Assembly (NCBI GenBank): GCA_036245525.1
Contig: BTPG01000004.1
Location: 231,430,004 to 231,494,003, forward strand
Direction of reading: 5' to 3'
Origin: Semisulcospira habei
Taxonomy: Eukaryota > Mollusca > Gastropoda > Semisulcospiridae
DNA length: 64,000 nt
This document shows positions 35,681 to 63,215 of this stretch, piece after piece. The translations under genes were made by a program, and so were the position numbers. Under the pieces are notes generated by a model that saw only the letters and a program-made list of their open reading frames with translations, was not told the origin of the DNA and searched no databases. Every line of letters starts with the position of its first letter. The stretch's first letter is position 1.

Positions 35681-37873
35681 CGGCCTCCACGTGTCTTGGG
35701 TGGGCAGTCCCCTCAGTCCCTGACTGAGTGGGCTAGCAGAAGGGTGCCATCTTTGTCCAGGATTAGGACTTGATGTCAGCAGATATGTTGTTCAGTCTTT
35801 TTCACTGGTCCGGTTTTTAAGGAGCTGTGCTTACCCAGGTTCTACCATGTTGGATTGGTCCTTAAAAATACGCGTGAGCTTTTGGTCCTTTGGATCCCAA
35901 GTGTTTGCCATGCTTGGAGACCCGTGTCGGGGGAGAAGAGGATCCTGGTGGCTGAAACACTCCACTTTGGCCTTGACTTCTGCCTAAATGGGAGGCTAGT
36001 CGTACCGGCCTAGTCAATCTGCTCTTGTCATGTTGAGCCCTATCCCACTGTTGACATGCGGGTTGCTATACGGAGCACCATGCTATAGCCTCTGCTGCTG
36101 ATTAGGTGCTTTACGCCAGTATTCCCCTGCATTCAACAGTGTGATAGAAGGCGGTGGCTCAAACGGTTCAATCGGGCTTACCCCCTTGAGTATATCTTTC
36201 GGGCAGTCTCCATTGTGCGTCGGCTGGAGACCCGCCGACAGTTGCACTTTCCCTTGTTGGCTTGGTGGCGGGTGGGGACCCCCGGGGGATGAATATCTCT
36301 ACTATAATAATATGGAAAAATTAAAAAACCAAAACTGGCACCAAAGCGGCATATAGCCACTGACATTGACCTTGAAAATGATAGGGACTCCGATTGTGAG
36401 GAAGCGACGCCTCGGGCATCGGCCGTCTGGCCTCACTTTCTCATTATCCACACTCCAGCAAAGTTAAAGAGAAGCCAGTTTCCAAGCTGCACCCTTTCCT
36501 GGTAGGGGAGACCCTCAGGAGCCGTGTTGGCAGGCCTGAGGCCCAGCGCCTCAGGTCTGGTGACTTGCTGGTAGAGTGCCGTACCCGGGCACACTCCAAT
36601 GGGCTACTGAGGCTCTCCTCCATCAGAGACACGCCAGTGGAGGTCACTCCCCACAAAACGATGAATTCTTCTAGAGGAGTGATTAAAGATCAAGCATTGG
36701 CAGAACTGTCTGAAGATGAACCTTTACGGAACCTTAAGTCACAGGGGGTGACCTACGTCAGGCGCTTCATTTCCAAATGAGGTGGTAGGGAGATCCGTCT
36801 CCCTACCATCATCCTGACGTTTGGCACCCCCACCGCTGCTACTACCATCTGGGGAGGTTACTACTCCCTAAAAGTGAAAAAGTACGTCCCTCTCCCCCTC
36901 CGGTGCTTTAAGTGCCAAAAGTATGGCCATGGGCAGAAGACATGCTGCCAGGCAGAGGCTCTATGCGCCCGCTGCACTAAGCCCGGACACTGCTGAGTCC
37001 TGCACAGCCATCCCCCTGTGTGTGAATTGCCAGGGGGTGCATATGGCTTCAGACAAGAAGTGCCCTCATTGGATATCCGAGTGCAGGATTCAGCAGGTGC
37101 GTGTGAAGTGGCTGTCCTTTGCGGACGCCAAAAAACTGGTTGATGGCCCTGGTGCAGTTGAGGCTGCGCCAAACTCAAATAACAACTTTGTGTATACTTT
37201 CAGTGCTGCGGTGGCAGGCAAGCACCCCACCAAAGACTTCTCTTGTCAAACCCCAACTTCTTGGTTGGGGGGCGGAGCCTCGGATCCTCTCGCCCCTGGA
37301 GAGTAACCCTCCTCCATTGGTGATGAGGAGCCAGGGAACGCAGAAGGCGGACGCTGCCGGTCTGGTGGCACCGCCTTCTGCTGCCCCTAAGCCTCAGCCC
37401 CCACCCAAACCTGTCAATCTTACTACAAAGGCTTCTGGCTCTGGTCAGCCTTCTAAGGCCGCCAACTCTGGCGGCAGGAACGCTGCCCCGGCCCAGAAGT
37501 CTAAGAAAGTTACGGGACTGCTGTGCGTACGGGCCCAGAAGGGGGACACTGATGTCCCCCTTCAAAACAAATATGCTGCATTGGAGGAGCAGATGGAGGG
37601 AGTGGAGGTTGTCGTAGCTGGTGCTGCGGCAGCTTCTCCCCCCTCATCTCCGAGGAACCAGAGGAGGCCCGGGAGTCGATCCCCCTCTGTTTCTTTGACT
37701 TATTCCAAAGCACAGGAAAAGGGGGGAAGGAACTCTTCTCCTACACATAAAACCTAACCATGTACTCTCTGCTTCAGTGGAATTGTCGTGGTTTTCACAC
37801 CAACTTTGAAGAATTACGCCTTCTAGTCAAATCCTATAACCCCTCGGTAATATCTCTTCAGGAGACTTACCTG
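35681..37873 (+). mobile_element. LINE-A copy A7, left half (target of the Polinton)
   Basis: Has the family 5' end (GGGCACCGGCCTCCACG), 5' UTR, degraded ORF1 and the first 40 or so codons of ORF2 (QWNCRGFHTNFEELRLLVKS). It stops at ...GAGACTTACCTG. The same copy resumes at 63,210 with TACCTGAAGGCTTCTGACC. Confidence 0.92.
36312..37757 (+). pseudogene. LINE-A ORF1 (copy A7), degraded
   Basis: Recognisable Gag-like protein with CFKCQKYGHGQKTC and CVNCQGVHMASDKKC. Lesions include an insertion near 36,455, TGA in place of CGA at 36,778-36,780, a lost base pair in the second knuckle near 36,992, and a G insertion near 37,265. A7 was already old when the Polinton entered, or has decayed since. 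Confidence 0.85.
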
Positions 37874-39098
37874 AGAGAGAGTAATACTGAGTGGTCTAAA
37901 GCATCATTAACACAATGACTGAGTTAACCCCTTGATTATATTTTTTTTGACCCTCCATTGTTCATGTCTCCCACACAGAGTAAATACCATTGGAAGTTAC
38001 CCCTAAATCATTATTATTTAAACAGCCACATTTTTAAGGGGTTAACTCATTGTGTTCCCCTCCATCCCCCTTCCCCATAGACAAAAAAAAAAAAAAAAAA
38101 AAAAATCAATCAAACACCCTGGTCAAACCAGTGCTGATAACCCTGGAGCTATCACATACACAAACACCTCATGTCTACACTTGTCTGAAATCCACCTCTA
38201 TTCAGATATACCATGAAGTGCTGCAATTATTCATGTCAGGACTAGTAATCTTTTAAAATACACTCTACCAGCTAGGATATGTATCACACTACAATACGTA
38301 TTCACATATTTATTTTTATTTCCATTAAAATGCAAAATAGCCAACTCCAATACACACACACAGACATCCCCACCCCTTTTTCACAAAAGAGAGGCCTGTG
38401 CTTATATCAACATTACATGCACTGACGAACCTGACTCACTCTATGTATAAACACCATGAAGTCTTTACAGACACAGAGTTAAAATGAGTTTGCAACCTGT
38501 TGGAAAACAGAGAAAAGCTTTAAGTTAAGATCTTTCTTGTATTTTATGCTGAGGGGAGTGTTTAATGTTGACTGTTATTATTCAATGTACTTGAGAAACT
38601 GCTGACTGTGTTTACACTGCACTTGAGAGAAACTGCACATGACTGTTTACACAGCACTCGAGGTGCTGTGCATGACTGTTATTTAATACCACTTGAGAAA
38701 CTGCTGACTAGAGTTTGTACTTCAAAAACTGCTTTGTCATAACCACATTGCAAAACCTTTAACTTCATGTTGGCACAGTAATTTATTGTCACTCCATGAA
38801 TACACAAAGTGATAGTCAAAAGTGGTAAGAGTGGTGTTTTATATCTCTGCTTGTTAGACTGCCTGGTTTTGTCTACTGATTTTATTCTGCACTCAAATCA
38901 GACATGAACAAACCAGTTTGAACAGAAACAGGACTGATGACGTGGGCACTGACAAAGGGTGTTTGCTTGTCATGAGTGGTGCTTTTAGGCTGACTAGTTT
39001 GCTCCATGCAGTAGTCTTTACAGGTTGTGAAAACAAGGTGTGTAGTCATTTTGAAAGCAAGGTTGTGTAGTTATTTTGAAAGCAAGATGTGTTTTGCT
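37874..39098 (+). repeat. Polinton left terminal inverted repeat
   Basis: About 1,225 bp, highly similar in reverse complement to 61,474-63,209. It includes a poly-A run (38,083-38,104), CACACA tracts and the direct repeat CACTTGAGAAACTGC... at 38,588-38,720. It has no ORF that persists in the other copy. The inner limit is GTGTTTTGCT. Confidence 0.92.
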
Positions 39099-39460: not shown

Positions 39461-40156
39461 TTATTTGTTTAAAAGAATGTGTAGTTTTTCTGTGGTTTCC
39501 TGTACCCCTATCCTTTTTCCCTCTGCTAAAAAACTGGCCTTCAGTTCTTCAATATTCACAGGTGATTGACTACGCATTTTATTCTGTATTTCAGATTTCT
39601 GTTTTTTGTAGTTATTTAAATCATCCTGGACGCGCTTAAATTCTTCGTCATCAATACAATTATCATTTAATGCCTTACTGATAATAAGTTTCATACTGCT
39701 TAGCTTTGCACCAGCCAGCGTACTCAATGCTTCATGTTTCTGTAATTTTGTGTGAAACCTCTTGTTCAAGGCTTCCAAACCAAAGCAAGCCAGGCATGTA
39801 GCAACGCTAACAGCCTCAATTGCTATTCCAGCGAAACTTCCAATTCCTGTGGCGAAAAGAGTTATACCTCCTACAGATAATCCAGCTGAAACTGCACCAA
39901 TAGCCATAGAAGTGTTTTGAACAGAATTAAATACTGACTTATACCTCCTTTTTCATCTGGAGTACTTAGCCTCTTCACTTTCCAAATATTTTAAAGCTTC
40001 TGTTATATTATTTAATCTGAAGGCGTCTGCCGGTAATGTTTTATCTGAAGCAACTGGCACAGCTGTCACCTGTGGATCAGGTGCAAGCGTTGTTTTAGTC
40101 ATCACATTTGATTCAGTTGGCTCATGCGTCGGTAGTTGTGGATAGAAGTTTACCAT
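39461..40156 (-). pseudogene. Polinton conserved membrane/helical protein with one in-frame TGA
   Basis: Two open segments, 40,156-39,953 (67 codons) and 39,907-39,461 (148 codons), are in the same frame. One TGA separates them, and another 15 open codons follow it before the Met at 39,907. The second segment has a Gly/Ala-rich hydrophobic stretch (AIGAVSAGLSVGGITLFATG ... ATCLACFGLEAL), then a helical region (DNCIDDEEFKRVQDDLNNYKKQ). I recall similar proteins beside capsid genes in invertebrate Polintons; function is unknown. A preceding ATAAAAAAATG resembles other starts in the element. Confidence 0.7.
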
Positions 40157-40182
40157 TTTTTTTATTGAGAAATATTTTTTAT

Positions 40183-41076
40183 TTAATCAGCAATTACATT
40201 TTGCAACTCTTCAAAAGTATACAATTTGCTGGCATAATAAAATGAAACAAGATCAATGTGTTCAAGGTTTATGTAACTTAGACGAACAAAAGTTGCTTTG
40301 TCAACCACCACCTTGACAGCAGGAATACTGCTCGAAACATTAATAACATCATTATTTTTTGTAATAGCAATAAAGACCTTTGATGACTCTGCCACTGTGT
40401 CATTCCATGTAAGTTTAATTCCCTGTGCTATATCTGCCTCTTTTACAGAAGCTACAGATCTCAAGATAATTTCAAATACTATTGTCACGTCTCTTGCGAT
40501 GGTAAAGTTTGCTGGTGTAAACACGACCCTTGCATCAGACCTACCCTTCCTGTGCGTAAGAAGATACCGCCGTCTCTCATAATTTTCAACTTTTAGTTTT
40601 TCTCTGCTATTGTCGTCTGAAGAAAAACTTGGAACAAGACTTACAATAAGCGGCCCAGAATTAACAACCTTCCTAAACACTAAGGCACCTTCGTCATCAG
40701 TGTATACATAAGGACTAATAAATTCAATCTTTATGTCCCAGTCAATTGTGGGTGGTGGTGCAGGTACAGGCGGCACAAGCGAAACAACCCATTTAGTACC
40801 CACATGTATTAAGTTGTAGGGCACATTATTTACAAGATTAGGCGCAACAGGCACAGTAACATCACGAAGCTGACCAAGTTTAGGAATCTGTCTTTCACCG
40901 TCTTTTATGTCAACAATTACTCTCCGCTTGTACATGCCAGTTGAATCAAGTTCAAAACCATATATTTCTCCAATTTCTCCTTCCTTCTCAAAATCCTGTA
41001 CGTCTGCCAAATCTTTCAACTCTGTTACCGGACATGCAACTGGTATGATTCTAGGCTTTGGACCAAGACCACTCAT
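40183..41076 (-). CDS. Polinton protein of unknown function, 297 aa
   Basis: The ATG at 41,074-41,076 follows TTTATAAAA, like other genes here. The protein begins MSGLGPKPRIIPVACPV, has a Pro-rich hinge (SLVPPVPAPPPTIDWD) at about 105-120, and is otherwise rich in beta-type alternating hydrophobic residues. It has no transmembrane segment and no catalytic motif I recognise. Its 5' end is 20 bp from the stop of the penton-like gene, in the same direction, which suggests co-expression and a structural role (for example a spike or minor capsid protein). That role is inference. Confidence 0.75.
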   Translation of the reverse strand: MSGLGPKPRIIPVACPVTELKDLADVQDFEKEGEIGEIYGFELDSTGMYKRRVIVDIKDGERQIPKLGQLRDVTVPVAPNLVNNVPYNLIHVGTKWVVSLVPPVPAPPPTIDWDIKIEFISPYVYTDDEGALVFRKVVNSGPLIVSLVPSFSSDDNSREKLKVENYERRRYLLTHRKGRSDARVVFTPANFTIARDVTIVFEIILRSVASVKEADIAQGIKLTWNDTVAESSKVFIAITKNNDVINVSSSIPAVKVVVDKATFVRLSYINLEHIDLVSFYYASKLYTFEELQNVIAD

Positions 41077-41096
41077 TTTTATAAACAAAAATAAAA

Positions 41097-41807
41097 TTAT
41101 TTAACTTCTAACACTACACTAAAATCATGCATAACAACTGGTTTGTCATCTTGATTAGTTACAGATATACTTAGTGACTCAAAGAAACTAGACCCTAATT
41201 TCTTAAACTGTAAATTAGGAAATCTAACAACTACACTTTCACAATACGGAGCAGTTCCAGTTGGCAAGCATCTCAACAAAGTTGAAGGCTTTCCATTGTG
41301 TACATTCTCAGATGTGTTCAGTTCTTTCAAATAAACATTTAGTACAGTATGTACTGACAAATTGACAGGTCGTTTTCCAGTTATTTTAAGTTTTTTTGTC
41401 TTCATTGTTATAATACCAAACATAGCTTCATCAATATTATCTGATCTCCACCAATCTTCGTCAATATAAAATCCAAGTAAATATGCAAATCTGTCTGAAA
41501 TCCTTAACCAATTTTGTGTCAGAAATTCTAATGTAACAAGTAGGTTAGCTGGATTTAAAGTTGCTTTAATTTTAAAATTACTTTGAAACCATTCAGCTAT
41601 AGTACAAAAGTCATAATACCCAGGTGGTATAGCTTCAGTCTTACCATCAAAAATTACTTTATTATATATATCATCTTCTACATTAAACCATTTTACAGTG
41701 TAGAACAATTCATGGATAGCTACAGCCTTACTACAATCACGATTATCAATCCCATTAGTTAACCACACTGGTTTGCTTGTGTCAAGATTTGTTAAGGTAA
41801 TAAACAT
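41097..41807 (-). CDS. Probable penton / minor capsid protein, 236 aa
   Basis: Starts at ATG 41,807 after GATAATAAAA. The segment IPPGYYDFCTIAEWFQSNFK, followed by a strand (LLVTLEFL) and LRISDRFAYLLGF, matches the layout I know from single-jelly-roll penton-like proteins of Polintons, adintoviruses and related viruses: a GYY-turn, a helix, then a strand and a LGF box. In such virions these proteins fill the fivefold vertices next to the double-jelly-roll capsid protein. It is intact and all beta by eye. Assignment is by pattern, without alignment. Confidence 0.6.
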   Translation of the reverse strand: MFITLTNLDTSKPVWLTNGIDNRDCSKAVAIHELFYTVKWFNVEDDIYNKVIFDGKTEAIPPGYYDFCTIAEWFQSNFKIKATLNPANLLVTLEFLTQNWLRISDRFAYLLGFYIDEDWWRSDNIDEAMFGIITMKTKKLKITGKRPVNLSVHTVLNVYLKELNTSENVHNGKPSTLLRCLPTGTAPYCESVVVRFPNLQFKKLGSSFFESLSISVTNQDDKPVVMHDFSVVLEVK

Positions 41808-41833
41808 TTTTATTATCTCATATAAAAAGAAGG

Positions 41834-42865
41834 ATGGAATTTAAATCACCAACCATTACCACTACAAACGCATTTCAATTTAATATAGATGCCAAATACA
41901 ATGTTGCACCTACTTATGAACAGAAAATAATTCAACTAAACCAGCTTGACATAGCTGTGTCTGAACAAGATCTATTCCAAGTGAAAGTACCAAACCCATT
42001 TGACCATTACCTAAACCCTCCAATAACAGATGACTCTACTGCAAGAAAGTGGTCTTCAAGTCCACTACAGATGTTTCAAAACCAACTCAACTTTGCCATA
42101 CTGTGTTCAACTACAGGCTGTGGTGTTTCATTCACAGACCATTTGAATCACTCAAACAAACTGATTAGGTCTGTGTATCGTTTTCATGTTTACTACCAGC
42201 TTAGACGTATACTGTCAGAACTGCATACACCATTACCAACTGAATCCAGTTTCAACAGGTTTAACAACCCCATGGATATGAAAGCATTTGAACGCATCTG
42301 TAATGAGTTTAACATCAGCCCTAAGTATGACTTTACACAAAAACTTGATGATCACAATGGTATGGGCACACTGTATTATGCTTTGAGTCACAGACAATAC
42401 CCTCAAGATTACTACCCCGGTTACACTTCATTCTCATCAAAATCTGAAGTCTGGTTAGGCTCCATTGAACAGAAGCAGACTAACGCCTGGACCACATTTA
42501 TTTTAGACAAGAGTGACGGATTTACTCAAGCAGGAGTCGAGCGCATAAATGAGTCAATCAGAACATATGTCTGGTGTATACTAGGTGCACAATCACTAAC
42601 AAAATCAAACATTTTGAATGGAAGTGGAAAATTTGAAGCACAAAAACAATTTCTCGCTAATCTTGAAGATTCAGTCAATTCATCAGTTGATCTCCCATCT
42701 AGCATACAGCGCTACCAAGACGTACTCAGATATGCCAGATCAAAAGTTGACTTTGTAGTTGGCATCGGGTTATACATGTTACCATCTGACCTTCAACTCC
42801 AAATGGGGACAATAACAAATTATAATAAAATGAAATCATTGTTGCAGGTGTTGGTCAAAAACTAG
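41834..42865 (+). CDS. Polinton protein of unknown function, 343 aa, 3' end frameshifted
   Basis: Diverges from the penton-like gene, sharing a 26-bp intergenic region (TCTCATATAAAAAGAAGG). Soluble, no transmembrane segment, with Phe/Tyr/Gln-rich middle (YYALSHRQYPQDYYPGYTSF). I recall long conserved proteins of this kind in cnidarian and molluscan Polintons, but no function is known to me. The final 11 codons after TNYNK lie in a different frame from the Thr/Pro-rich tail that follows at 42,834-43,119, so a one-base slip near the A-run at 42,826-42,831 is likely. Confidence 0.7.
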   Translation: MEFKSPTITTTNAFQFNIDAKYNVAPTYEQKIIQLNQLDIAVSEQDLFQVKVPNPFDHYLNPPITDDSTARKWSSSPLQMFQNQLNFAILCSTTGCGVSFTDHLNHSNKLIRSVYRFHVYYQLRRILSELHTPLPTESSFNRFNNPMDMKAFERICNEFNISPKYDFTQKLDDHNGMGTLYYALSHRQYPQDYYPGYTSFSSKSEVWLGSIEQKQTNAWTTFILDKSDGFTQAGVERINESIRTYVWCILGAQSLTKSNILNGSGKFEAQKQFLANLEDSVNSSVDLPSSIQRYQDVLRYARSKVDFVVGIGLYMLPSDLQLQMGTITNYNKMKSLLQVLVKN

Positions 42866-43119
42866 GTCTCAATCAATCTGTAAACTTGGGGGCCACAACC
42901 ACACATGTACAGACATTAAAACCATTACAGACGGTAACACCCCCGGCCACGGCACCAGTAACATCATCACCTGTACAGACAGTAACAGCTCCAGCTTTGA
43001 CACCGGTACCCATAGCGATAACACCAACACCAACCCTTGACACACATGAGTCAGAGAGAACAGCATTGGTAATAGGACTCACTGGATTAGGAGTATTACT
43101 TCTTTATCTGTTTCATTAA
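42834..43119 (+). pseudogene. Thr/Pro-rich tail with C-terminal membrane anchor
   Basis: Reads through VNLGATTTHVQTLKPLQTV, a long Thr/Pro/Ala/Val stretch, then TALVIGLTGLGVLLLYLF, a single hydrophobic helix at the very end. It overlaps the preceding 343-codon frame and probably was its C-terminus before a frameshift. If so the protein was a tail-anchored, mucin-like membrane protein. It could also be a separate small gene, starting at ATG 42,888 or an upstream codon. It overlaps the 3' end of the convergent gene by about 24 bp. Confidence 0.55.
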
Positions 43120-44727
43120 ATAACCCACCATCAACCCTCCTACTGACACCAAAAAGACCCATACATGCTCCGCCATAAACCCTACTGCCTTCGCTGCAGT
43201 ACTAATCAACCAACTGACAACCGTGCCTATAATGCCAGGCAACGCATCTACTGCTTTCAGAGCCAATTTTTTAAGCAGGTCTGAAATGTGAGACAGTTGT
43301 TTCTTTACCCATGACTGTAAGTCTTTTGGGTCTGTGGGTGCCGGTGGTGTTGGGCCCGGAGTTGGACTACTACTACCGCCACCAGCACCGGAGACAGCCA
43401 ACACAACAGTACTGATAATAAATCCAAGAGCTGTAATTAAACTAGCAATTGTAATACCCTGTTCTCTGAAAAGTGCCCCACCCGGGTCTGCCCTGGGGGA
43501 CTTGGGTGGGGTTAGGTATTTTTTAGTTCCCAGGGTCACCCTGGTCAGCCCCACAGGGTGGGTTTTTCTCTCTATTCTGGGGCATGTGTTTCTGTCTACC
43601 CTTTGTCCATTCACCTGTATTTGCCTTTTTAAAACTCTCCCTACTGTCTGCACTGCCTGTAGCTCTTGATATTGGATGTGTGTTGCTAAATGGTCTTAGC
43701 TTTATTTAGGCCCCATGTGTTAGGTTTATTTAATGTATTTGACCGGCTGGCGACATACATTCAATGTTCTGTTTAGTTTTTTTTTTCACAAGCAGTGCAG
43801 GCACGTCCTGAGAAAGCCTTGTTGCTGTCGGGACGTTAAGCAATGTACAATCAATCAATGTTCTCTGAAAAGTGTTTTAAGTCTCTCAGCCAGAGTAGTG
43901 TCTTCATGAAGTATTTTCTGAATAGTTTCTCTTATTCTGTTAACTTGTGTTTTCAGTTTCTGTCTTCCGATACTAATTGCTTCTAACCTTCCAGATCTTT
44001 CTTCTATCTGCAGATCATTTAATCTGTGTTGAATTCTTTCTTTCATTTCTGTGTCAAGATTCCCATTGTCTGCTGTAGCCAGTTTCTCTTTTTCACGTTC
44101 AATGTGTTTATCAAGCTCACCCAGTTTGGCAATATTATTAACCATCTCACCTCTTATTGTCCGCAGTGATTTATCCAATCCCACAATCTCCCTCATTGTC
44201 AAAGGTGGGTCATCTATTGTTTTCATAGCATCATTTAATTGTCCTTCAGTAAATGAGGTTTCTTGTATCACTGTGTTTGCTATTTCTGGCAGTTTTGTTA
44301 CTGGTGCCATTTCAATCTCTTGCCCTGTTGGCAACTTTGTTTGCGTGTCGTGAAGAACACTAACAAGACGCGGTGTAACAGGAGACCCTCCAATTCCAAG
44401 GTACCTTGCCAACCCAGAGTTACCACCGACTTCACCTTTAATTGTACTTAAAGCTCTAAACTTAGAAGAATTGTTTTTATGTGTTAGATATATTTTTCCT
44501 CTGTCTGTATTTACAAATAAATGTCCTTTATCATATTCAAACTGGTTAGGATCCAAAACATCTGGGTGTGCACCAACACTGTCATAAAATGAGTTTACTT
44601 TGTCTTTTAGCAGTTCGTGATACATAGGAGAAATATTTCCCATTCCAGTCATATCTGTGATACTGGTATCTGAGGCATCCATGACATCCATTTCAAAATC
44701 TTCATGATTAAATCCTCCCGCTGCCAT
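43096..44727 (-). pseudogene. Polinton coiled-coil membrane protein split by a SINE-like insertion
   Basis: The 5' part (44,727-43,875) encodes about 285 residues: an acidic N-terminus (MAAGGFNHEDFEMDVMDASD), a globular middle, and a long heptad-rich region (EHEKEKLATADNGN-like, RIQHRLNDLQIEERSGRLEA). The 3' part (43,475-43,096) encodes a hydrophobic helix (IASLITALGFIISTVVLAV), a Gly/Pro linker, an amphipathic helix and a second hydrophobic stretch (VWVFLVSVGGLMVGYLM). The two parts meet exactly at the duplicated TGTTCTCTGAAAAGTG. It is divergent from the MCP gene. Role unknown; a minor virion membrane or scaffold-like protein is possible. Confidence 0.75.
43476..43858 (+). mobile_element. 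SINE-like repeat, complete, 383 bp
   Basis: Cleanest copy of the family. TSD TGTTCTCTGAAAAGTG (16 bp) at 43,460-43,475 and 43,859-43,874. Starts CCCCACCCGGGTCTGCC and ends CGGGACGTTAAGCAATGTAC plus (ATCA)n. It interrupts a Polinton gene in antisense. Confidence 0.9.
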
Positions 44728-46051: not shown

Positions 46052-46070
46052 AATTATATTGTGCATTAAA

Positions 46071-49131: not shown

Positions 49132-49133
49132 CA

Positions 49134-50098: not shown

Positions 50099-50103
50099 TC
50101 TCT

Positions 50104-54010: not shown

Positions 54011-54049
54011 CAACATCTGCCCACTGCCCATACATCCATACAACATTAT

Positions 54050-54173
54050 ATGAGAAAAAAAAAAACACAATTATTGTGAAAATAGTAATTGAGAAAGACA
54101 ATTTTGGGGTGAACATTTCTGGACCTCTTGAGACCCTTGACCTTTCCATGGGATCAGCCAAATTAGTATTCAT
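54050..54173 (-). pseudogene. Small Polinton membrane protein, 3'-truncated
   Basis: ATG at 54,171-54,173 overlaps the stop of the upstream gene as ATGA. About 40 native codons: MNTNLADPMERSRVSRGPEM, then a hydrophobic run (FSITIFTIIVFFFF). Beyond about 54,050 the frame enters LINE-B sequence. Likely a single-pass membrane protein, function unknown. Confidence 0.55.
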
Positions 54174-54337
54174 AGAAAGGTCTTACCATTAGGTATCTCT
54201 GTACCAAATTTAGGTTTCAAACTTTCTGCTGATTTCATTTTGAGTAGACTTTTTCCCAGCATAGAAAAAGCTACTGCTAATCCACTGATTACGGCAGAGT
54301 GATACACAAGGTTCATTATGTTTTTTGAGTCATTCAT
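54170..54337 (-). CDS. Small Polinton membrane protein, 55 aa
   Basis: MNDSKNIMNLVYHSAVISGL followed by AVAFSMLGKSLLKMKSAESL; one hydrophobic helix at about 10-28 and a basic C-terminus. ATGA overlap with the next gene suggests coupled translation or compact viral packing. Too short to assign. Confidence 0.55.
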   Translation of the reverse strand: MNDSKNIMNLVYHSAVISGLAVAFSMLGKSLLKMKSAESLKPKFGTEIPNGKTFL

Positions 54338-54371
54338 TTCTTAGGCAATAAAAATAAAATAAATAAATTTA

Positions 54372-54582
54372 TTAGTGCATGATAAATGGGTCAACAACTT
54401 TGGGTATTGTTGGTAATGTGGAGACTTCTGCTTTTGATGATGGAGTGTTTAATTTTTTGGACACTGTTCGAGTCTGTGGCTTGTATTTTTTGTATAATTG
54501 GTAAGCTATGTAACCAGATCCGACAACAAATGCGGCAACTACATATTTTGCTGTTTCAGAATTAGACTGGGTTGAAGGTCTT
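54372..54582 (-). pseudogene. C-terminal half of a Polinton protein split by LINE-A
   Basis: Open frame with a hydrophobic helix (AKYVVAAFVVGSGYIAYQLY), then a Lys/Thr/Ser/Pro-rich tail ending VVDPFIMH. The N-terminal half is at 60,608-60,867 on the far side of LINE-A copy A8; the TSD TCACTTTTATGTG marks the break. Confidence 0.65.
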
Positions 54583-55241
54583 TCACTTTTATGTGTGGCC
54601 TACCCGGCACCGGCCTCCACGTGGTGTAGGTGGGTAGTCCGCTCAGTCCCTGACTGAGTGGGCTAGCAGACGGGTGCCATCTTTGTCCAGGATTAGGACT
54701 TGATGTCAACAGATATGTTGTTCAGCCTTTTCACTGGTCCGGTTTTTAAGGAGCTGTGCTAACCCAGGTCGTACCATGTTGGATTGGTCCTTAAAAATAC
54801 TCGTGACTTTTTGGTCCTTTGGATCCCAAGTGTTTGCCGTGCTTGGAGACCCGTGTCGGGGGAGAAGAGGATCCTGGTGGCTGAAACACTCCACTTTGGC
54901 CTTGACTTCTGCCTAAACGGGAGGCTAGTCGTACCGGCCTAGTCAATCGGCTCTTGTCACGTTGAGCCCTATCCCACTGTTGACATGCGGGTTGCTATAC
55001 GGGGCACCATGCTATCGCCTTTGCTGCTGATTAGGTGCTTTACGCCAGTATTCCCCTGCATTCAACGGTGTGATAGAAGGCGGTGGCTCAAACGGTTCAA
55101 TCGGGCTTACCCCCTTGAGTATATCTTTCGGGCAGTCTCCATTGTGCGTCGGCTGGAGACCCGCCGACAGTTGCACTTTCCCTTGTTGGGCTCGGTGGCG
55201 GGCGGGGACCCTCGGGGGATGAATATCTCTACTAATATAAT

Positions 55242-56677
55242 ATGGATAAAACAAAAAAACCAAAACTAGCACAGAAACGGCATATAGACACCGAATTTGA
55301 ACATGACAGTGATTCAGACTGTGAGGAAGCGACGCCTCAGGCGTCGGCCGTATGGCCTCGCTTCCTCATTGTCCATAGCAAGATGAAGGAGAAACCAGTT
55401 ACCAAGCTGCATCCTTTTCTGGTGGGGGAGACCCTCAGGAGCCGTGTTGGCAGGCCTGACGCCCAGCGCCTCAGGTCTGGTGACTTGCTGGTGGAGTGCC
55501 GTACTCGGGCACACTCCAGCGGGCTACTGGGGCTCTCTTCCATCGGAGACACTCCTGTGGAAGTCACACCCCACAAAACTATGAATTCGTCAAGAGGCAT
55601 AATCAAAGATCAAGCTTTGGCAGAACTGTCAGAAGATGAACTTGTAAGGAACCTTAAGTCTCAGGGGGTGACTTGCGTCAGGCGCTTCGCTTCCAAGCGA
55701 GGTGGTGGGGAGATCCGTCTCCCTACCATCATCTTGACGTTTGGCACCCCCACCCCTCCTACTACCATCTGGGGAGGTTACTACTCCCTGAGAGTGAAAA
55801 AGTACGTCCCTCTTCCCCTCCGGTGCTTTAAGTGCCAAAAGTATGGCCATGGGCAGAAGACATGCCGTCAGGCAGAGGCTTCATGCGCCCGTTGCACTAG
55901 GCCCGGACACTCTGCCGAGTCCTGCACAGCCACCCCCCTGTGTGTGAATTGCCAGGGGGCGCATATGGCTTCGGATAAGAAATGCCCTCGTTGGATATCC
56001 GAGTGCAAGATTCAGCAGGTGCGTGTGGAGAAGGGGTTGTCCTTTCTGGATGCCAAAAAACTGGTTGAAGGCCCTTGTACAGCTGCGGCTGCCCCAACCT
56101 CTAACACCTCTGTGTATACTTTTAGTGCAGCGGTGGCAGGCAAGCGCCCCACCAAAGACTTTTCATGTCAGACCCCAACTTCTTGGTTGGGGGCGGAGCC
56201 TCGGCTCATCTCGCCCCTGGAGAGTAACCCTCCTCCGGTGGTGACAAGGAGCCAGGGAATGCAGAAGGCGGACACTGCCGGTCCGGTTGTGCCACCTTCT
56301 GTTGCCCCTAAGCCTCAGCCCCCACCCAAACCTGTTAGTCAACTCCAAAGGCTTCTGGCTCTGGTCAGCCTTCTAAGGCCGCTAACTCTAGCGGCAGGAA
56401 CGCTGCCCAGGACCAGAAGTCTAAGAAATCTATGGGACCGCTGTGCGCACGGGCCCAGAAGGGGAACACAGATGTCCCCCTTCAAAACAAATATGCTGCA
56501 CTGGAGGAGCAGATGGAGGGAGTGGAAGTTGTTGTTGCTGATGCTGCGGCAGCTCCACCCCCTTCCTCTCCGAAGAACCAGAGGAGGCCCGGGAGCCGGC
56601 CCCCCTCTGTTTCTTCAACTCCTTCCAAGGTAAAGGAAAAAGGGGGGGAAAACTCCTTACCCCCAGATAAGACTTAA
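55242..56677 (+). pseudogene. LINE-A ORF1 (copy A8), one frameshift
   Basis: Gag-like protein with knuckles CFKCQKYGHGQKTC, CARCTRPGHSAESC and CVNCQGAHMASDKKC. Two bases are missing near 56,338 (GTTAGTCAACTCC where A1 has GCTAGTTTGTCAACGCC), shifting the Pro-rich tail. The original frame resumes as MGPLCARAQKGNTDVPLQNK to the stop at 56,677. RNA-binding modules precede the lesion, so partial function cannot be excluded. Confidence 0.9.
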
Positions 56678-56679
56678 TC

Positions 56680-59600
56680 ATGGACTCTTTGCTTCAGTGG
56701 AATTGTCGTGGTTTTCAAGCTAACTTTGAGGAATTGCGTCTTTTAGTCAAGTTCTATAACCCCTCTGTAATATCTCTTCAGGAGACTTACCTGAAGACTT
56801 CTGACCCTGTGTCCTTTAATGGTTTTAATGTTATACATAAAGGCTCTGATTCGGAGAGGCGCTCGGGTGGAGCGGCTCTTCTCATTAGTAGCCAAATTTT
56901 ATGTAGCCCCGTTAGCATCGACACCTGTCTTCAGGCTGTCGCAGCTCGGGTTACCTTAAAGAAGACCATAACCATATGCAGTATTTACCTGCCACCATCA
57001 CTGCGGGTCTGTAGCAATGATATTTTTAACTTAGTAGATCAACTGCCCCCTCCCTTTATTCTCATGGGGGATTTTAACGGTCACGCTCACCTTTGGGGCA
57101 GTGACCACTATGATGGCAGAGGTCAGATGTTAGAAGATGTTTTTTCTCAACTTAACCTATGTGTCTTTAACGATGGCTCACCTACATACTCTAACTCAGG
57201 TTCAGGATCTAGTTCTGTTCTAGACCTCACTGTGTGTGATCCTTCTCTCATGCTGGACTTTGACTGGAAGGTTCACGATGACCTGTGTGGTAGTGACCAC
57301 TTCCCAGTAGTCCTGTCATCGGTCAGCTGTGAGGAGGATTCGCCGGTGGGGCGCTGGAATCTCAAGAAAGCTAACTGGCCTCTGTTTGCCTCCCTCTGTC
57401 AGTCTCGTCTTACAGAGGAGGTGGTCATGTCAGCTGAAGAACCTGTTTCTTGTTTTACTTTGATTTTGTTGGACGTAGCAGGTGAAACCATCCCTAGAAC
57501 TTCCACATCAGTCCCTCGGAGGCCGAGAGTACCATGGTTCAATGAAGAGTGCCGCAAGGCCCAAAAAATACGCAAATCTGCTCAGCAACGTGCTTTTCGT
57601 AATCCGTCGCAAGCAAATATTTTAACATTTAAAAGACAGCGGGAGAAAGCCCGTTACATTTTTAAACGCGAACGCCATGCTTCCTGGAGACGCTTTGTCT
57701 CATCTTTATCTTCTAGGACTCCATCCCAGAAAGTCTGGAGGGCTGTTCGAAGAATTAGGGGCAGAGGTGGCTCGGCTTCTGTCGGCCATCTTAGAGATGG
57801 TGCCAGTTTGGTCACAGATAAAAAGGCTGTGGCCAATTTGCTTGCCTCCACCATTGCCCATAATTCTTCAACAGAGCATTATTCACCTTTCTTCCAGAGA
57901 GAGAAGGAGAAGCGAGAATCTTGTGCTTGTGATTTTATATCAGATAACTCGGAAGACTATAATGCCCCCTTTACGTTTTCAGAATTGCAGCAAGCCATGC
58001 AGAAATGTACTGACTCTGCTGCTGGATTAGATACCATCCATTATCAGCTCCTAACTCATCTGCCTGAGGATTCACTCCTTGTACTTCTCAAGGCCTTTAA
58101 CCATATCTGGATAACCGGTCGTTTTCCGCCATCTTGGCGCCAGGCTGTGGTTGTGCCAATCCCCAAGCCGGGTAAGGATCCTTCCGACCCGGGCAACTAC
58201 CGGCCAATAGCTTTGACATCATGTTTATGTAAGACTATGGAACGCTTGGTCAACGCCCGACTGGTGTGGTATCTTGAGTCACGTGGTCTCATCACAGACC
58301 TCCAGTGCGGTTTCCGGCGCTTCCGTAGTACAACTGACCATCTAGTCCGCTTTGAGTCTTTTATCCGAGATGCTTTTGTCAACAAGCAGCATGTCTATGC
58401 AATTTTCTTTGATCTTGAAAAGGCATATGACACTACCTGGAAGTATGGTATAATGTCTGATTTGTCGGACATGGGTTTTAAAGGGCACCTGCCTGTTTTT
58501 ATTCACAATTTTTTGTCTAACAGGTCGTTCCATGTCCGTGTGGGCTCCACCCTCTCCGACTCCTTTGAACAGGAGATGGGTGTCCCGCAGGGCAGCATTC
58601 TATCTCCTGTTTTATTTAGCATTAAAATAAATAACATTGTCAAGGCCGTCAAGGATGATTCTGAATGCTCTTTGTTTGTGGACGACTTTGCTTTGTGTGC
58701 ACGAGGTCGAGGACTTGCGTCCCTTGAGAGGCGCTTGCAGCTGTGCGTTGATCGCATCCAGGGGTGGGTGTCTCTCAACGGATTCAGGTTCTCGCCCTCC
58801 AAGACAGTCTGTGTGCATTTTACTAACCAGACGAAATTTTTTCCAAAACCTACCCTGAGCATTGCTGGAGTGCCAATTCAGGTGGCCGAAGAGGCAAAGT
58901 TTCTGGGGGTCATCTTTGACAAAAGATTGACCTTCCGCAACCATGTTAACTACCTTAGAACCTCTTGTCCGAAGGCCCTCGACATTCTTCGTGTCGTTGG
59001 TCGTACTGACTGGGGTGCAGACCGTATCGTCTTACTTCGACTGTACCGGGCCCTTGTTCGGTCCAAACTGGATTACGGCTCTGTGGTATATGGCTCGGCT
59101 TCCAAGTCTGTTCTACAGCGTCTGAACACAATTCACCATCAAGGTCTGCGCATATGTCTGGGAGCCTTCAGGACATCTCCTGTTCCTAGTCTGTATGCAG
59201 AGGCAGGGGAGCCTTCTCTCAGGCTCCGCCGCATCCGCCTCATGCTCAGCTACGTTCTGAAGCTGAAGGCCCATCCAGAAAATCCTGCCTATGATTGTGT
59301 TTTTAACCCGTCATTTGCAGAGATTTACGATGCCCATCCGGGAGCTGTCCGTCCACTTTCCTTCCGTGTCCGACCTCATCTGCAGGCGGCCGGAGTGGAC
59401 CTGGACAAAGTTTCGGAATCTCTGCAACACGTCACTCCACCCTGGCTACTACCAGTTCCTGACATCTTGCTGGACTTGACTGCCCACAAGAAGGATTGTA
59501 CTCCACCAGCCATATACCAACAGAGCCTCAATGAACTCCTTTCAATTTTTCCTGGCTATTGTCGTCTTTATACGGATGGGTCCAAATCTGAGGATGGAAG

Positions 59601-60372
59601 AGTGGCTGCGGCTGCAGTGTCCTCTCGCCATCCTAGACGCCCATTTAAGCTCCGTCTCCCTGACCATTCCTCTGTATTTAGTGCAGAACTGCAGGCAATT
59701 CTGCTAGCACTCAAGCATGCCTATCAGTCTCGGGAAAGGAACTTCCTGATTCTGTCTGACTCTCTTTCTGCCCTGCAGGCCCTTCAGGGCGCGGGAACAG
59801 ACCATCCACTGCTGGTGCAGATTAGAGAGCTCTACGCGGACTTAATGAAGGAATATTATGACATCATTTTTATTTGGGTCCCAGGCCATGTGGGCATCGA
59901 AGGCAACAGAATCGCAGATTCTGCTGGCAACAGTGCCCGCATTGACCCTGTCCCTGACACACAGACTGTCTATAGTGATTTTAAACCTGTTATTAGTGCG
60001 TACATAGCCCGCGAGTGGCAGTCCGAGTGGGACAAAGAGGAAGGGAACAAGCTTCATGAAGCTCTTCCTAAGTTGTCTGACAGTCTACCTTTCCGCTGCG
60101 GCAGCCGCCGTGAGGAGACTGTCCTTGCTCGGCTCCACATCGGGCACACGTATGTTACGCACTCTTACTTACTTAAACGGGATGAGCGTCCATGGTGTTT
60201 TGCCTGTGATGAGCAGTTTTCTGTTCGACACTTTTTGCTGTATTGTGCTGACCTCATTGACACCAGATATAAACACTTCACAGCAGACTCCTTGAAGGTT
60301 TTGTTCTGGGATGTTCCTCCGGACAAAATCTTCAATTTTTTGAGAGAATGCAATATTTTTAACAAGATCTGA
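56680..60372 (+). CDS. LINE-A ORF2: endonuclease-RT-RNase H polyprotein, intact, 1,230 aa
   Basis: EN at about 1-225 (LLQWNCRGF, LQETYLK, MGDFNGHAHLWGS near 130, SDHFPV near 205). RT at about 480-760 (VVPIPKPGKDPSDPGNYRP, FFDLEKAYDTTW, catalytic FVDDFALC near 665, with FVDD rather than YxDD). RNase H at about 960-1090 with D-E-D-D/H residues in YTDGSKSEDG, SAELQAILLALKHA, ILSDSLSALQAL and GHVGIEGNRIADSAG. C-terminal knuckle C-x2-C-x7-H-x4-C at about 1,173-1,189. EN+RT+RNH places it with the I-group. Start chosen at ATG 56,680, two bases after the ORF1 stop. Confidence 0.95.
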   Translation: MDSLLQWNCRGFQANFEELRLLVKFYNPSVISLQETYLKTSDPVSFNGFNVIHKGSDSERRSGGAALLISSQILCSPVSIDTCLQAVAARVTLKKTITICSIYLPPSLRVCSNDIFNLVDQLPPPFILMGDFNGHAHLWGSDHYDGRGQMLEDVFSQLNLCVFNDGSPTYSNSGSGSSSVLDLTVCDPSLMLDFDWKVHDDLCGSDHFPVVLSSVSCEEDSPVGRWNLKKANWPLFASLCQSRLTEEVVMSAEEPVSCFTLILLDVAGETIPRTSTSVPRRPRVPWFNEECRKAQKIRKSAQQRAFRNPSQANILTFKRQREKARYIFKRERHASWRRFVSSLSSRTPSQKVWRAVRRIRGRGGSASVGHLRDGASLVTDKKAVANLLASTIAHNSSTEHYSPFFQREKEKRESCACDFISDNSEDYNAPFTFSELQQAMQKCTDSAAGLDTIHYQLLTHLPEDSLLVLLKAFNHIWITGRFPPSWRQAVVVPIPKPGKDPSDPGNYRPIALTSCLCKTMERLVNARLVWYLESRGLITDLQCGFRRFRSTTDHLVRFESFIRDAFVNKQHVYAIFFDLEKAYDTTWKYGIMSDLSDMGFKGHLPVFIHNFLSNRSFHVRVGSTLSDSFEQEMGVPQGSILSPVLFSIKINNIVKAVKDDSECSLFVDDFALCARGRGLASLERRLQLCVDRIQGWVSLNGFRFSPSKTVCVHFTNQTKFFPKPTLSIAGVPIQVAEEAKFLGVIFDKRLTFRNHVNYLRTSCPKALDILRVVGRTDWGADRIVLLRLYRALVRSKLDYGSVVYGSASKSVLQRLNTIHHQGLRICLGAFRTSPVPSLYAEAGEPSLRLRRIRLMLSYVLKLKAHPENPAYDCVFNPSFAEIYDAHPGAVRPLSFRVRPHLQAAGVDLDKVSESLQHVTPPWLLPVPDILLDLTAHKKDCTPPAIYQQSLNELLSIFPGYCRLYTDGSKSEDGRVAAAAVSSRHPRRPFKLRLPDHSSVFSAELQAILLALKHAYQSRERNFLILSDSLSALQALQGAGTDHPLLVQIRELYADLMKEYYDIIFIWVPGHVGIEGNRIADSAGNSARIDPVPDTQTVYSDFKPVISAYIAREWQSEWDKEEGNKLHEALPKLSDSLPFRCGSRREETVLARLHIGHTYVTHSYLLKRDERPWCFACDEQFSVRHFLLYCADLIDTRYKHFTADSLKVLFWDVPPDKIFNFLRECNIFNKI

Positions 60373-60607
60373 GCATTCATTGACTATGTGAATTTTTTAT
60401 TTGCCCTTTTTGAGAGTCTGTAGACGTTTCTTTTCAAGACATGTGCGACATTTTAGCCTGAGATTTTTAATCTATATTTACATCTTGTCTTAAGACCTTG
60501 CTTTTAGTCTGGCTGACCAGATTTTTACCCATCCCGCCGTGAGATGGCCTTAGTCACCTGCTCGGCGTTAAACCCAAATAACTAACTAACTCACTCACTT
60601 TTATGTG

Positions 60608-60867
60608 GGTGTGACAGGGGTGTTGAAAGTCCTGACGGTCCTATCGGTGTTGACGCCTGGTCACTTACATGAGCCTTTTCTGTTTGCGCTTGAAGCTGTA
60701 ATTTTTTTTTGCTTGTTCCATTCAGCTAAACGTTTACCAGACTCAACCCTGCCTGGATTTTTAATTTTTGTCACTGTGTGAATCTGAGTCTGGGCAGGGT
60801 CCGGGACAGGGTTCATCTGTGGGGTCGTTTGGGGGGTCGTCTGTTGGTCGTCCATTTTTATCAACAA
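60608..60867 (-). pseudogene. N-terminal half of the split Polinton protein, with a frameshift
   Basis: MDDQQTTPQTTPQMNPVPDP and then a basic segment (GKRLAEWNKQKK). At the run of nine T (60,701-60,709, A on this strand) the frame that leads to the stop at 60,661 differs from the frame that stays open to the LINE-A junction, so a run-length slip is likely. Its start overlaps the 3' end of the next upstream gene by 107 bp in another frame. Confidence 0.6.
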
Positions 60868-61312
60868 AAAAATTTAATTTCGCAAAATCGACATGGCTGC
60901 TCGTTATTAATAAAGTTACCAGAGGAGCGAGCAAATTACCAAACCTGTAGAATAAAAGGCAAGCTAATTTACCAATTGCACTCGTTACAATGGGGTTACT
61001 CTCAAGGTCATTTGTGAGATTTTCAATGTCTACAGGAAGAGCATAACTAACAGCTTTTGAATATAAGCAGACAATTGATTTGCTCAAATCACGGGTCATT
61101 AGTGAAGCCATGTGTTGTTCGTATTTAAAATGAAGTTTAAATAAATCATCAGCCGTGAGGGATTGTATATCTTCAGTTGAATATTGCTTTCCAAGATATG
61201 TTTTGGAATGACCAGAAATCACTACAGATAAAAGTCTTTCTCGTTTCGAATCTAAGTCTATGTTTTCTACAGCACTGATATCATTTAATAATAGCAGTTC
61301 ATCTGAATTCAT
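60761..61312 (-). CDS. Polinton protein of unknown function, 183 aa
   Basis: Starts MNSDELLLLNDISAVENIDL, followed by a helical region (SKRERLLSVVISGHSKTYLG, then YSTEDIQSLTADDLFKLHFKYE). A hydrophobic stretch (LACLLFYRFGNLLAPLVTLLI) lies at about 115-135, and an acidic Pro-rich tail ends the protein (DDPPNDPTDEPCPGPCPDSD). Intact. I recall similar proteins near the ends of invertebrate Polintons but know no function. It is the gene nearest the right TIR. Confidence 0.7.
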   Translation of the reverse strand: MNSDELLLLNDISAVENIDLDSKRERLLSVVISGHSKTYLGKQYSTEDIQSLTADDLFKLHFKYEQHMASLMTRDLSKSIVCLYSKAVSYALPVDIENLTNDLESNPIVTSAIGKLACLLFYRFGNLLAPLVTLLITSSHVDFAKLNFFVDKNGRPTDDPPNDPTDEPCPGPCPDSDSHSDKN

Positions 61313-61473
61313 TTTATAATAAAATATATTTTTAATAATAAGTGAAATAAAAATGCACTTACCTTTGAAATAAGGAGCTGTTTCGACTTAATTAGTCTCA
61401 TCAGAAAGGTCAAAAACGTTTGACAGCTCATGGCCACCTACTTTGTACCAAAGACTACATATCAAAGCCAAAC

Positions 61474-63209
61474 AGCAAAACACATCTTGCTTTCAACACA
61501 TCGTTTTCAAAATGACTGCTCAACTGTGTAGAGACGACTGTAGTAATCAGCCTAAAAGCACCACTCATGACAAGCAAACACCCTTTGTCAGTGCCCACGT
61601 CATCAGTCCTGTTTTTGTTCAAACTGGTTTGTTCATGTCTGATTTGAGTGCAGAATAAAATCAGTAGACAAAACCAGGCAGTCTAACAAGCAGAGATATA
61701 AATCACCACTCTTACCACTTTTGACTATCACTTTGTGTATGCATGGAGTGGAAATAAATTACTGTGCCAGCATCAAGTTAAAGGTTTTGCAATGTGGTTA
61801 TGACAAAGCAATTTTTGAAGTACAAACTCTAGTCAGCAGTTTCTCAAGTGGTATTAAATAACAGTCATGCGCAGCACCTAGTGCTGTGTAAACAGTCATG
61901 TGCAGTTTCTCTCAAGTGCAGTGTAAACACAGTCAGCAGTTTCTCAAGTACATTGAATAATAACAGCCAACATTAAACACTCCCCTCAGCATAAAATACA
62001 AGAAAGATCTCAACTTAAAGCTTTTCTCTGTTTTCCAACAGGTTGCAAACTCATTTTAACTCTGTGTCTGTAAAGACTTCATGGTGTTTATACATAGAGT
62101 GAGTCAGGTTCGTCAGTGCATGTAATGTTGATATAAGCACAGGCCTCTCTTTTGTGAAAAAGGGGTGGGGATGTCTGTGTGTGTGTATTGGAGTTGGCTA
62201 TTTTGCATTTTAATGGAAATAAAAATAAATATGTGAATACGTATTGTAGTGTGATACATATCCTAGCTGGTAGAGTGTATTTTAAAAGATTACTAGTCCT
62301 GACATGAATAATTGCAGCACTTCATGGTATATCTGAGGCTGGACAGGATATGGCGAAGTAACTCCATCAGCTTCACCATCAAGTACAGGCTTTACAAGTC
62401 CCTCGTAGTGTCTATTCTACTCTACGGCTGTGAGACTTGGACACTGCTTGCAGACTCAGAAAAGAAAATCCAGGCCTTTGAGAACAAGTGCCTGAGGAAG
62501 TTGCTCCGCATCTCGTACCGCGAGCACAAAACCAACGAATATGTACGGAGCATCGTCACCTCCCTGGTGGGCCCACATGAACCTCTTCTGGCAACCGTGA
62601 AACGGCGCAAGCTTGCTTGGTTTGGCCACGTGACCCGACACAACACCTTGTCCAAGACTATCCTCCAAGGCACTCTCGAAGGAAGTCGTCGGCGAGGTCG
62701 TCAGAGAAAGAGTTGGGTCGCAAACATAAAAGAATGGACCGAACTCGAGATGCCAGACTTGCTTGCCACCGCCCAAAATAGAACTCAGTGGAGAGCACTG
62801 TCTGTTGCTGCTGCCTTTCAGTCCCCCCAACGCCCAGTTCGGGCAAGGGACTGATGATGATGATGATGATGGTATATCTGAATAGAGGTGGATTTCAGAC
62901 AAGTGTAGACATGAGGTGTTTGTGTATGTGATAGCTCCAGGGTTATCAGCACTGGTTTGACCAGGGTGTTTGGTTGATTTTTTTTTTTTTTTTTTTTTTT
63001 GTCTATGGGGAAGGGGGATGGAGGGGAACACAATGAGTTAACCCCTTAAAAATGTGGCTGTTTAAATAATAATGATTTAGGGGTAACTTCCAATGGTATT
63101 TACTCTGTGTGGGAGACATGGACAATGGAGGGTCCAAAAAAATATAATCAAGGGGTTAACTCAGTCATTGTGTTAATGATGCTTTAGACCACTCAGTATT
63201 ACTCTCTCT
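61474..63209 (-). repeat. Polinton right terminal inverted repeat, with an RTE insertion
   Basis: Reverse complement of 37,874-39,098, interrupted by 62,337-62,868 plus its duplicated target. Without the insertion it is about 1,190 bp. Small differences from the left arm (for example one short AATA change and unequal TGATGA/A-run lengths) show limited divergence since insertion. Confidence 0.92.
62337..62868 (+). mobile_element. RTE-like LINE 3' fragment with (TGATGA)n tail
   Basis: TSD ATGGTATATCTGA at 62,324-62,336 and 62,869-62,881. Encodes the RT C-terminus YKSLVVSILLYGCETWTLLA, then KLAWFGHVTRH and GRQRKSWVANIKEWTELEM, open to a TGA at the start of the tail. A 5'-truncated insertion inside the right TIR; the left TIR shows the empty site. 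Confidence 0.9.
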
Positions 63210-63215
63210 TACCTG

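What the first reader, a model, noticed from the sequence alone, without database searches (positions are those of the whole stretch)
37868..63215. A Polinton/Maverick element with exact ends, nested inside a retrotransposon
The sequence shows 5'-AGAGAGAGTAATACT termini in inverted orientation over about 1.2 kb and a perfect TACCTG duplication. Reading across the two LINE-A flanks restores the family endonuclease frame, so this is a clean insertion of 25,336 bp. Six-bp TSDs and AG ends are established Polinton hallmarks. With MCP, ATPase and PolB pieces inside, this is an endogenous copy of a capsid-encoding, virus-like transposon.
Basis: partly seen in the sequence, partly recalled or inferred. 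Interest (0 to 1): 0.9.

Follow-up and report, generated by a model that had tools for sequence, protein, structure and literature searches.

The report
Capsid-encoding Polinton nested inside a LINE
A damaged copy of a virus-like DNA element that carries a capsid gene jumped into a retrotransposon and was later jumped into by other mobile elements; its family has spread to several thousand copies in this genome, with the capsid gene kept in working shape by selection.

Summary
An element at 37,874-63,209 has ~1.1-kb inverted ends, a TACCTG duplication, and sits in a LINE-A copy whose endonuclease frame is open across the joined flanks. It is a Polinton/Maverick copy: capsid gene intact (427 aa), ATPase with an in-frame stop, only the first part of PolB left. 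About 13.1 of 25.3 kb is later sequence. Against a sibling, 4.2 kb with most of PolB and the integrase is gone, so it cannot be autonomous. Of 22 copies examined, 14 have 5-bp duplications, 7 have 6-bp, 1 none. The larger result is copy number: capsid-gene 30-mers occur 4,137 (5') and 3,633 (3') times in 1.98 Gb, controls 0. In a sample of 20 copies, 13 keep an uninterrupted capsid frame; among 14 intact genes dN/dS is 0.09. Vertebrate Mavericks average 22 per genome, maximum 287 (PMC8097293). A known kind of element, amplified to the level of the most loaded protists in PMC10120064, with capsid-preserving selection.

The parts
35676..37873 (+). left part of the host LINE-A copy into which the element inserted (ends inside its endonuclease frame)
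   Evidence: blastn to LINE-A copies at 16295-18486 and 5735-7934, 92%; empty-site alignment
37868..37873 (.). left target-site duplication TACCTG
37874..38996 (+). left terminal inverted repeat, starts AGAGAGAGTAATACT
39461..40186 (-). accessory ORF, in two frames here (39461-39952, 39953-40186); one 234-aa frame in sibling stretch L035
   Evidence: no Pfam match for 39464-39952
40183..41100 (-). accessory ORF, 305 aa
   Evidence: no Pfam match
41097..41840 (-). accessory ORF, 247 aa; could be a minor virion protein (guess, not tested by fold)
   Evidence: 3 relatives; no PDB match
41804..43119 (+). accessory ORF; one 426-aa frame in sibling stretch L033, in two frames here (41804-42865, 42829-43119)
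43096..44739 (-). accessory ORF; one 419-aa frame in sibling stretch L033, interrupted here by the repeat at 43475-43859
43475..43859 (.). 385-bp interspersed repeat, inserted with a ~16-bp target duplication
44768..46048 (+). major capsid protein gene, intact, 427 aa
46035..46682 (+). packaging ATPase gene (Pox_A32 9.4e-13) with one in-frame stop (46035-46493, 46494-46682)
   Evidence: uninterrupted 215-aa frame in sibling stretch L034
46683..47096 (+). accessory ORF, 137 aa
47129..47422 (+). stretch that holds the 5' part of the PolB frame
   Evidence: 95.7% to L034 (45624-47422 with 1-1798); PolB frame of L034 starts at 1533
47423..49515 (.). 2,093-bp insert with 19-bp perfect inverted ends GACTAAGTGCCAAAAGGTG and ATAT duplication
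49516..50098 (+). PolB N-terminal remnant; the gene breaks off here
   Evidence: 96% to L034 1795-2377; 121 other places among the 122 scored match this frame
50099..54224 (-). LINE-B (EN-RT frame 50129-53419) and some unassigned sequence, standing in place of 4,169 bp that hold most of PolB and the integrase in sibling L034; no target duplication seen
54225..54595 (-). right-arm accessory ORFs, first part
   Evidence: 96.5% to L034 6547-6919
54596..60594 (+). nested LINE-A (EN, RT, RNase H) with 13-bp duplication TCACTTTTATGTG
60595..61387 (-). right-arm accessory ORFs, second part (60661-60873 and 60761-61387)
61544..63209 (-). right terminal inverted repeat, interrupted by 62337-62868
62337..62868 (+). 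532-bp insert, probably a non-LTR fragment (DUF6451, 1.6e-5, below the cut-off), with 13-bp duplication TCAGATATACCAT
63210..63215 (.). right target-site duplication TACCTG
63216..63565 (+). right part of the host LINE-A copy
   Evidence: blastn to 18475-18832, 91%

Best explanation
This is an endogenous, degraded copy of a Polinton/Maverick. The parent lineage encodes its own PolB (replication), an rve-type integrase (integration by a staggered cut that leaves 5- or 6-bp duplications), a packaging ATPase and a major capsid protein. The copy integrated into the endonuclease frame of a LINE-A; afterwards it took at least four insertions and lost 4.2 kb with most of PolB and the integrase, where a LINE-B now stands, so it can move only if proteins come from other copies. 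Shown: ends, duplication, empty site, intact capsid frame, losses against a sibling, sibling gene content, thousands of capsid-gene sites, purifying selection on the capsid gene. Inferred: that the capsid is used in the family's spread, and that replication is protein-primed.
For: Ends, duplication and empty site; 17 other copies with the same ends; capsid; ATPase; rve integrase and PolB in sibling L034; loss mapped against L034; PolB sequence downstream of the capsid gene at 4 of 4 other loci and integrase at 3 of 4 (at one of them in inverted orientation); copy number; dN/dS 0.089.
Against: PolB of this family is mostly below the Pfam cut-off (18.1 against 25.8 bits in L034; no DNA_pol_B_2 match for the 1,078-aa frame in L073). 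No adenain-like protease and no minor capsid protein were recognised. The window's own capsid protein scores 12.4 bits against a Capsid_N cut-off of 24, has no PDB sequence match, and its fold could not be modelled. 5-bp duplications outnumber the 6-bp hallmark. At 3 of 4 other capsid loci no pair of terminal repeats was found in the stretches fetched.
Confidence: 0.94

Rival explanations
1. (Refines rather than excludes the best explanation.) The family is a virus that repeatedly endogenised: most copies are separate infections of the germ line by circulating particles, not jumps within the genome.
For: Capsid gene under strong purifying selection (dN/dS 0.089), although a plain transposon has no evident need of it; mean synonymous divergence among the sampled capsid copies (0.24) far exceeds the divergence between the two ends of the single copies dated (0.1 to 2.7%; other loci), so lineages diversified before such insertions; relatives of capsid and integrase are listed with equally long contigs (9,977, 13,209 and 17,223 bases; that these are the same contigs is inferred from the equal length).
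Against: Several thousand copies are also expected from replication inside the genome; the window and C4:39.27 copies share an interrupted ATPase frame, which suggests multiplication inside the host with help from other copies; no particle or free genome was looked for.
Confidence: 0.4
2. The element is a composite: a capsid-bearing virus fragment and unrelated transposon ends brought together by chance or by misassembly.
For: Heavy nesting; another capsid locus carries different ends; at one of four other capsid loci PolB and integrase lie in inverted orientation.
Against: Same ends and same inner order in the parts read of sibling copies C4:39.27 and C4:10.96; perfect duplication and empty site.
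Confidence: 0.03
3. The capsid gene has been co-opted by the host, for instance against related viruses, and selection acts on the host side.
For: Intact capsid frame in a copy that is otherwise broken.
Against: Thousands of dispersed copies, many equally intact; nothing seen sets the window copy apart.
Confidence: 0.04

Closest known systems
Vertebrate Mavericks (PMC8097293; passages, and part 1 of 2 of the Results)
   Same: (AG)3//(CT)3 ends, TIR length within 46-1,447 bp, element size near 17 kb (C4:10.96 and C4:39.27 by their coordinates), PolB, ATPase, integrase, capsid
   Different: there the capsid gene lies in the module with integrase, PW, minor capsid and protease; here it lies on the PolB/ATPase strand. 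Duplications there 6 bp, here 5 or 6. Copy number there mean 22, median 8, maximum 287; here 3,633-4,137 capsid sites
Trichomonas vaginalis Mavericks (PMC10120064; passages)
   Same: thousands of capsid genes per genome (2,224 and 4,841)
   Different: a protist with a far denser load (27 capsid genes per Mb against about 2 per Mb here)
Adintoviruses / meldviruses (PMC11071296; passages; the 2021 adintovirus paper is not held)
   Same: PolB plus rve integrase plus capsid; that paper also mentions genomes that join such PolB/integrase with virion proteins like those of larger DNA viruses
   Different: adenain protease and penton not recognised here; the integrase's chromodomain was not tested
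Polinton-like viruses of cryptophytes and chrysophytes (PMC12220804; passages)
   Same: TIRs, rve integrase in part of them, duplications of about 4-6 bp, endogenous expansions
   Different: protist hosts; 1,175 complete elements over several genomes

Membership tests
Polinton/Maverick | long terminal inverted repeats starting with AG repeats | tested here: met
   about 1.1 kb, AGAGAGAG ends; 58 genome matches of the terminal 21-mer, control 0
Polinton/Maverick | 6-bp target-site duplication | tested here: met
   TACCTG at this copy; over 22 copies 7 have 6 bp, 14 have 5 bp (one of them only if two extra bases are allowed), 1 none; 306 non-self pairings of 18 copies give 2 at 5 bp and 0 at 6 bp
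Polinton/Maverick | rve integrase | tested here: met
   absent from this copy; present in sibling L034, PF00665 1.2e-10
[quoted passage not shown]
   remnant only in this copy; the L034 frame hits PF03175 below the cut-off (0.0013) and the L073 frame does not; one PF03175 place above the cut-off (3.2e-11, C1:40030465-40031796) lies about 3.9 kb downstream of a capsid copy on the same strand, the spacing seen in L034; the other 9 places were not checked. Protein priming itself is not testable here
Polinton/Maverick | packaging ATPase | tested here: met
   Pox_A32 9.4e-13, 2.6e-14 in L034
Polinton/Maverick | double-jelly-roll major capsid protein | tested here: inconclusive
Polinton/Maverick | adenovirus-type cysteine protease | tested here: inconclusive
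   no such Pfam match in the frames scanned; Pfam misses most genes of this family and some short frames were not scanned
Polinton/Maverick | minor capsid (penton) protein | tested here: inconclusive
   candidate ORF 41097-41840 has 3 relatives and no PDB match
Adintovirus | integrase with C-terminal chromodomain | not tested
   a 231-aa integrase frame of L034 was scanned and gave rve only; the longer 339-aa frame of L035 was not scanned

The most novel reading that the evidence does not exclude
This genome carries a capsid-encoding Polinton family that was, until very recently, multiplying by a route that needs the capsid (particles inside or between hosts), reaching thousands of copies; lineages with different terminal repeats share one capsid/PolB/integrase core, and copies with broken genes were carried along in trans.
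Probability: 0.4. Interest if true: 0.85.

Novelty: new member of a known kind. Interest (0 to 1): 0.6.

Why it matters
Whether Polintons are viruses or transposons is a long-standing question, because particles have not been observed (abstract of PMC8097293, seen). A genome with several thousand capsid-gene sites, many of the sampled genes intact, and capsid selection at dN/dS 0.09 is a place where particles could be looked for directly. In the papers seen, such loads were reported for protists (PMC10120064); the highest vertebrate count seen is 287 (PMC8097293).

Tried and rejected
Related loci in the viral and bacterial/archaeal collections: none confirmed. Capsid protein in phage records: none. 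PDB sequence matches of capsid, ORF247 and PolB: none convincing. PHROGs gave only generic matches for ATPase, integrase and PolB. NCBIfam gave only weak ATPase-type matches. Rfam: none at the gathering score in 37,000-64,000. Target preference for LINE-A: of 34 flanks (100-150 bases each) of 17 other copies, 3 match window sequence outside the element, none at the LINE-A endonuclease site, so the LINE insertion looks like a chance target. Host identity: a Wnt search (PF00110) did not complete; that the host is an animal is inference from genome size, the LINEs and relatives such as the Elysia protein. Genome counts of an integrase 30-mer and a TIR 29-mer did not complete. A first TSD control included self pairs and was replaced. 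A script meant to recompute insert duplications found none because its offsets were wrong (its 19-bp inverted ends stand); the duplications given are read.
Full report
OBSERVATION. The element spans 37,874-63,209 with the direct repeat TACCTG on both sides. Its ends are inverted copies: 341 bases at 99.1% and 795 bases at 98.2%; the right copy is split by a 532-bp insert. Counting substitutions, the two ends differ at 3 of 341 and 12 of 793 aligned positions. The two LINE-A flanks joined with one TACCTG align, with no gap at the junction, to the LINE-A copies at 16 kb, 5 kb and 54 kb (the last one nested in the element), and one frame is open across it.

WHAT IS INSIDE. Left to right: accessory ORFs, a 427-aa capsid gene on the + strand, an ATPase gene with an in-frame stop, a 137-aa ORF and the start of a PolB gene. 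The capsid protein has 3,928 relatives at E up to 0.001; 120 are listed, 113 of them with a longest contig under 20 kb; one, from Elysia marginata, bears the name major capsid protein. Of 36 aligned members 27 match Capsid_N at E up to 1, best 2e-4; the window's own protein scores 12.4 bits, below the cut-off of 24.

WHAT IS MISSING. Against the sibling at C4:10.96 Mb (L034), window 47129-47422 and 49516-50098 belong to the PolB region, split by a 2,093-bp insert with 19-bp inverted ends. At 50,098 the alignment leaves L034 at 2,377 and returns at window 54,225 = L034 6,547. The missing 4,169 bp hold most of PolB and, on the other strand, an rve integrase (1.2e-10). In their place stand 4,126 bp with a LINE-B. 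A LINE-A (5,999 bp), a 385-bp repeat and the 532-bp fragment came on top. Net Polinton sequence is 12,201 of 25,336 bp. By its gene content the copy cannot replicate or integrate by itself (inference).

THE FAMILY. The terminal 21-mer has 58 exact matches, control 0. From them 18 pairs in inward orientation (window included; in one, C4:10.96, only the left end is an exact match) were read; two more matches form a 244-bp mini-element on C9, and the remaining 21 were left single. Abutting duplications are 6 bp in 6, 5 bp in 11, and one copy (C4:39.27) shows 5 bp only if two extra AG bases are allowed. A few lie in simple repeats (poly-C, GT-rich), where a match is worth less. Two copies whose inverted repeats extend about 118 bp further out, again to an AGAGA start, have 5-bp duplications; a copy of another subfamily at C1:20.75 Mb has a 6-bp one; one 8.2-kb copy at C7:185.56 has none. 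In all 14 of 22 have 5 bp, 7 have 6 bp and 1 has none. Among 306 non-self pairings of the 18, 2 match at 5 bp and none at 6 bp. That elements of this wider group show about 4-6 bp is in print (PMC12220804, passages).

AGE. Divergence between the two ends of single copies runs from 1 of 1,058 positions (C4:39.27) to 29 of 1,089 (C4:10.96), with 16 further pairs between 0.2 and 2.3% over 411 to 1,100 aligned bases. The window, at about 1.3%, is middling. No host mutation rate is known, so no years are given; gene conversion between ends could lower these values.

COPY NUMBER. A 30-mer near the start of the capsid gene has 2,110 + 2,027 = 4,137 matches with up to 2 mismatches, control 0; an independent one near its end has 1,849 + 1,784 = 3,633, control 0. 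These count sites, not whole elements. The genome has 1.98 Gb in 507 contigs. Twenty of the 100 listed exact hits (all on C1, every fifth row) were read: 18 of 20 align over the gene (one of them from base 6), and 13 of 20 have an uninterrupted frame of 427 or 428 codons. The sample is chosen by an exact 30-mer, so the share of intact genes is likely too high for the whole set. In the scored protein search 97 of 98 places have no stop, but these are the best-scoring ones. For PolB, 21 of 122 scored places have open frames of 1,169 aa or more. Four other capsid loci were read on both sides (two top protein hits, two from the exact list): PolB sequence lies downstream at 4 of 4 and the integrase at 3 of 4 (in the fourth the stretch ends inside PolB); at one of them, C1:311.5, PolB and integrase are inverted relative to the capsid gene, so that locus is rearranged or holds two copies. 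A terminal-repeat pair was found at 1 of these 4.

SELECTION. Among 14 intact capsid genes (13 sampled plus the window) mean dN is 0.0213 and mean dS 0.2398, ratio 0.089, jackknife 0.084-0.094, single pairs 0.013-0.275. Only uninterrupted frames entered; the 7 broken ones of the 20 were left out. Selection of this strength means that copies with a working capsid were the ones that left descendants. A plain transposon has no evident need of a capsid, so the simplest reading is that spread goes through a capsid-dependent step. Whether that step is inside one organism or between organisms is open.

AGAINST. PolB is weak by Pfam: 18.1 bits against 25.8 in L034, no DNA_pol_B_2 match for the 1,078-aa frame of L073. 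The genome search for PF03175 gave 10 places; one, C1:40030465-40031796, lies about 3.9 kb downstream of a capsid copy on the same strand (my arithmetic), the distance expected from L034; the other nine were not checked. No protease was recognised and the penton is only a candidate. The motif YTDTDS, typical of family B polymerases (recalled), is present in the second PolB piece of L034.

SHARED BREAK. The window and C4:39.27 copies both have the ATPase frame ending at the same residue, yet C4:39.27 is very young by its ends. Either the stop is tolerated or such copies move with proteins from others; this favours help in trans but is not proven.

COMPARISON. Vertebrate Mavericks: mean 22, median 8, maximum 287 per genome, (AG)3 ends among others, 6-bp duplications, capsid and integrase in one module (PMC8097293, passages and part 1 of the Results). 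Here the capsid gene is on the PolB and ATPase strand. Protists reach 2,224 and 4,841 capsid genes in two T. vaginalis assemblies and 3,251 in Paulinella (PMC10120064, passages). My searches listed no report that I could recognise of thousands of capsid-encoding Polintons in an animal; I read listings and passages only, and the host here is not proven to be an animal.

VERDICT. The finding is correct and, taken alone, ordinary: a decayed Polinton in a LINE. The size and upkeep of its family are not ordinary.

The protease row was moved from 'not met' to 'inconclusive' (the Pfam test is too weak), the inverted arrangement at C1:311.5 and the missing terminal repeats at three loci were added, and the change of form in the integrase question is told.

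Noticed in passing
L070 (G000:C9:352345-352588): A 244-bp head-to-head mini-element made of the outer ~110 bp of this TIR at both ends, without a target duplication.
   Followed up: partly
window 9904-10046, 10047-10430, 10438-10690, 15323-15697 (-), 25037-25205, 25793-26000, 33217-33424, 34111-34310, 43475-43859: A ~385-bp repeat, whole or in part, present many times in the window, several times beside or between LINE-A pieces; it also sits at another place in sibling L033.
   Followed up: partly
window 27589-30052 and 50097-52564: Two LINE-B copies 93% alike, one outside and one inside the Polinton.
   Followed up: no
G000:C1, about 91-110 Mb: Exact capsid-gene hits are denser here: 45 of the first 100 listed rows lie in about 18 Mb; possibly a pericentromeric region.
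   Followed up: no
window 46035-46682 and L033 1259-1717: The ATPase frame ends at the same residue in two separate insertions, which suggests inherited damage and help in trans.
   Followed up: partly
L034 1533-3836: The PolB frame contains an endonuclease VII-like stretch (Pfam 0.00045, below the cut-off; PHROG 2.7e-6).
   Followed up: no
G000:C1:311523000-311544000 (L106, L107): Capsid/ATPase and PolB/integrase lie in opposite orientation here, unlike the siblings: a rearranged copy or two neighbouring copies.
   Followed up: no
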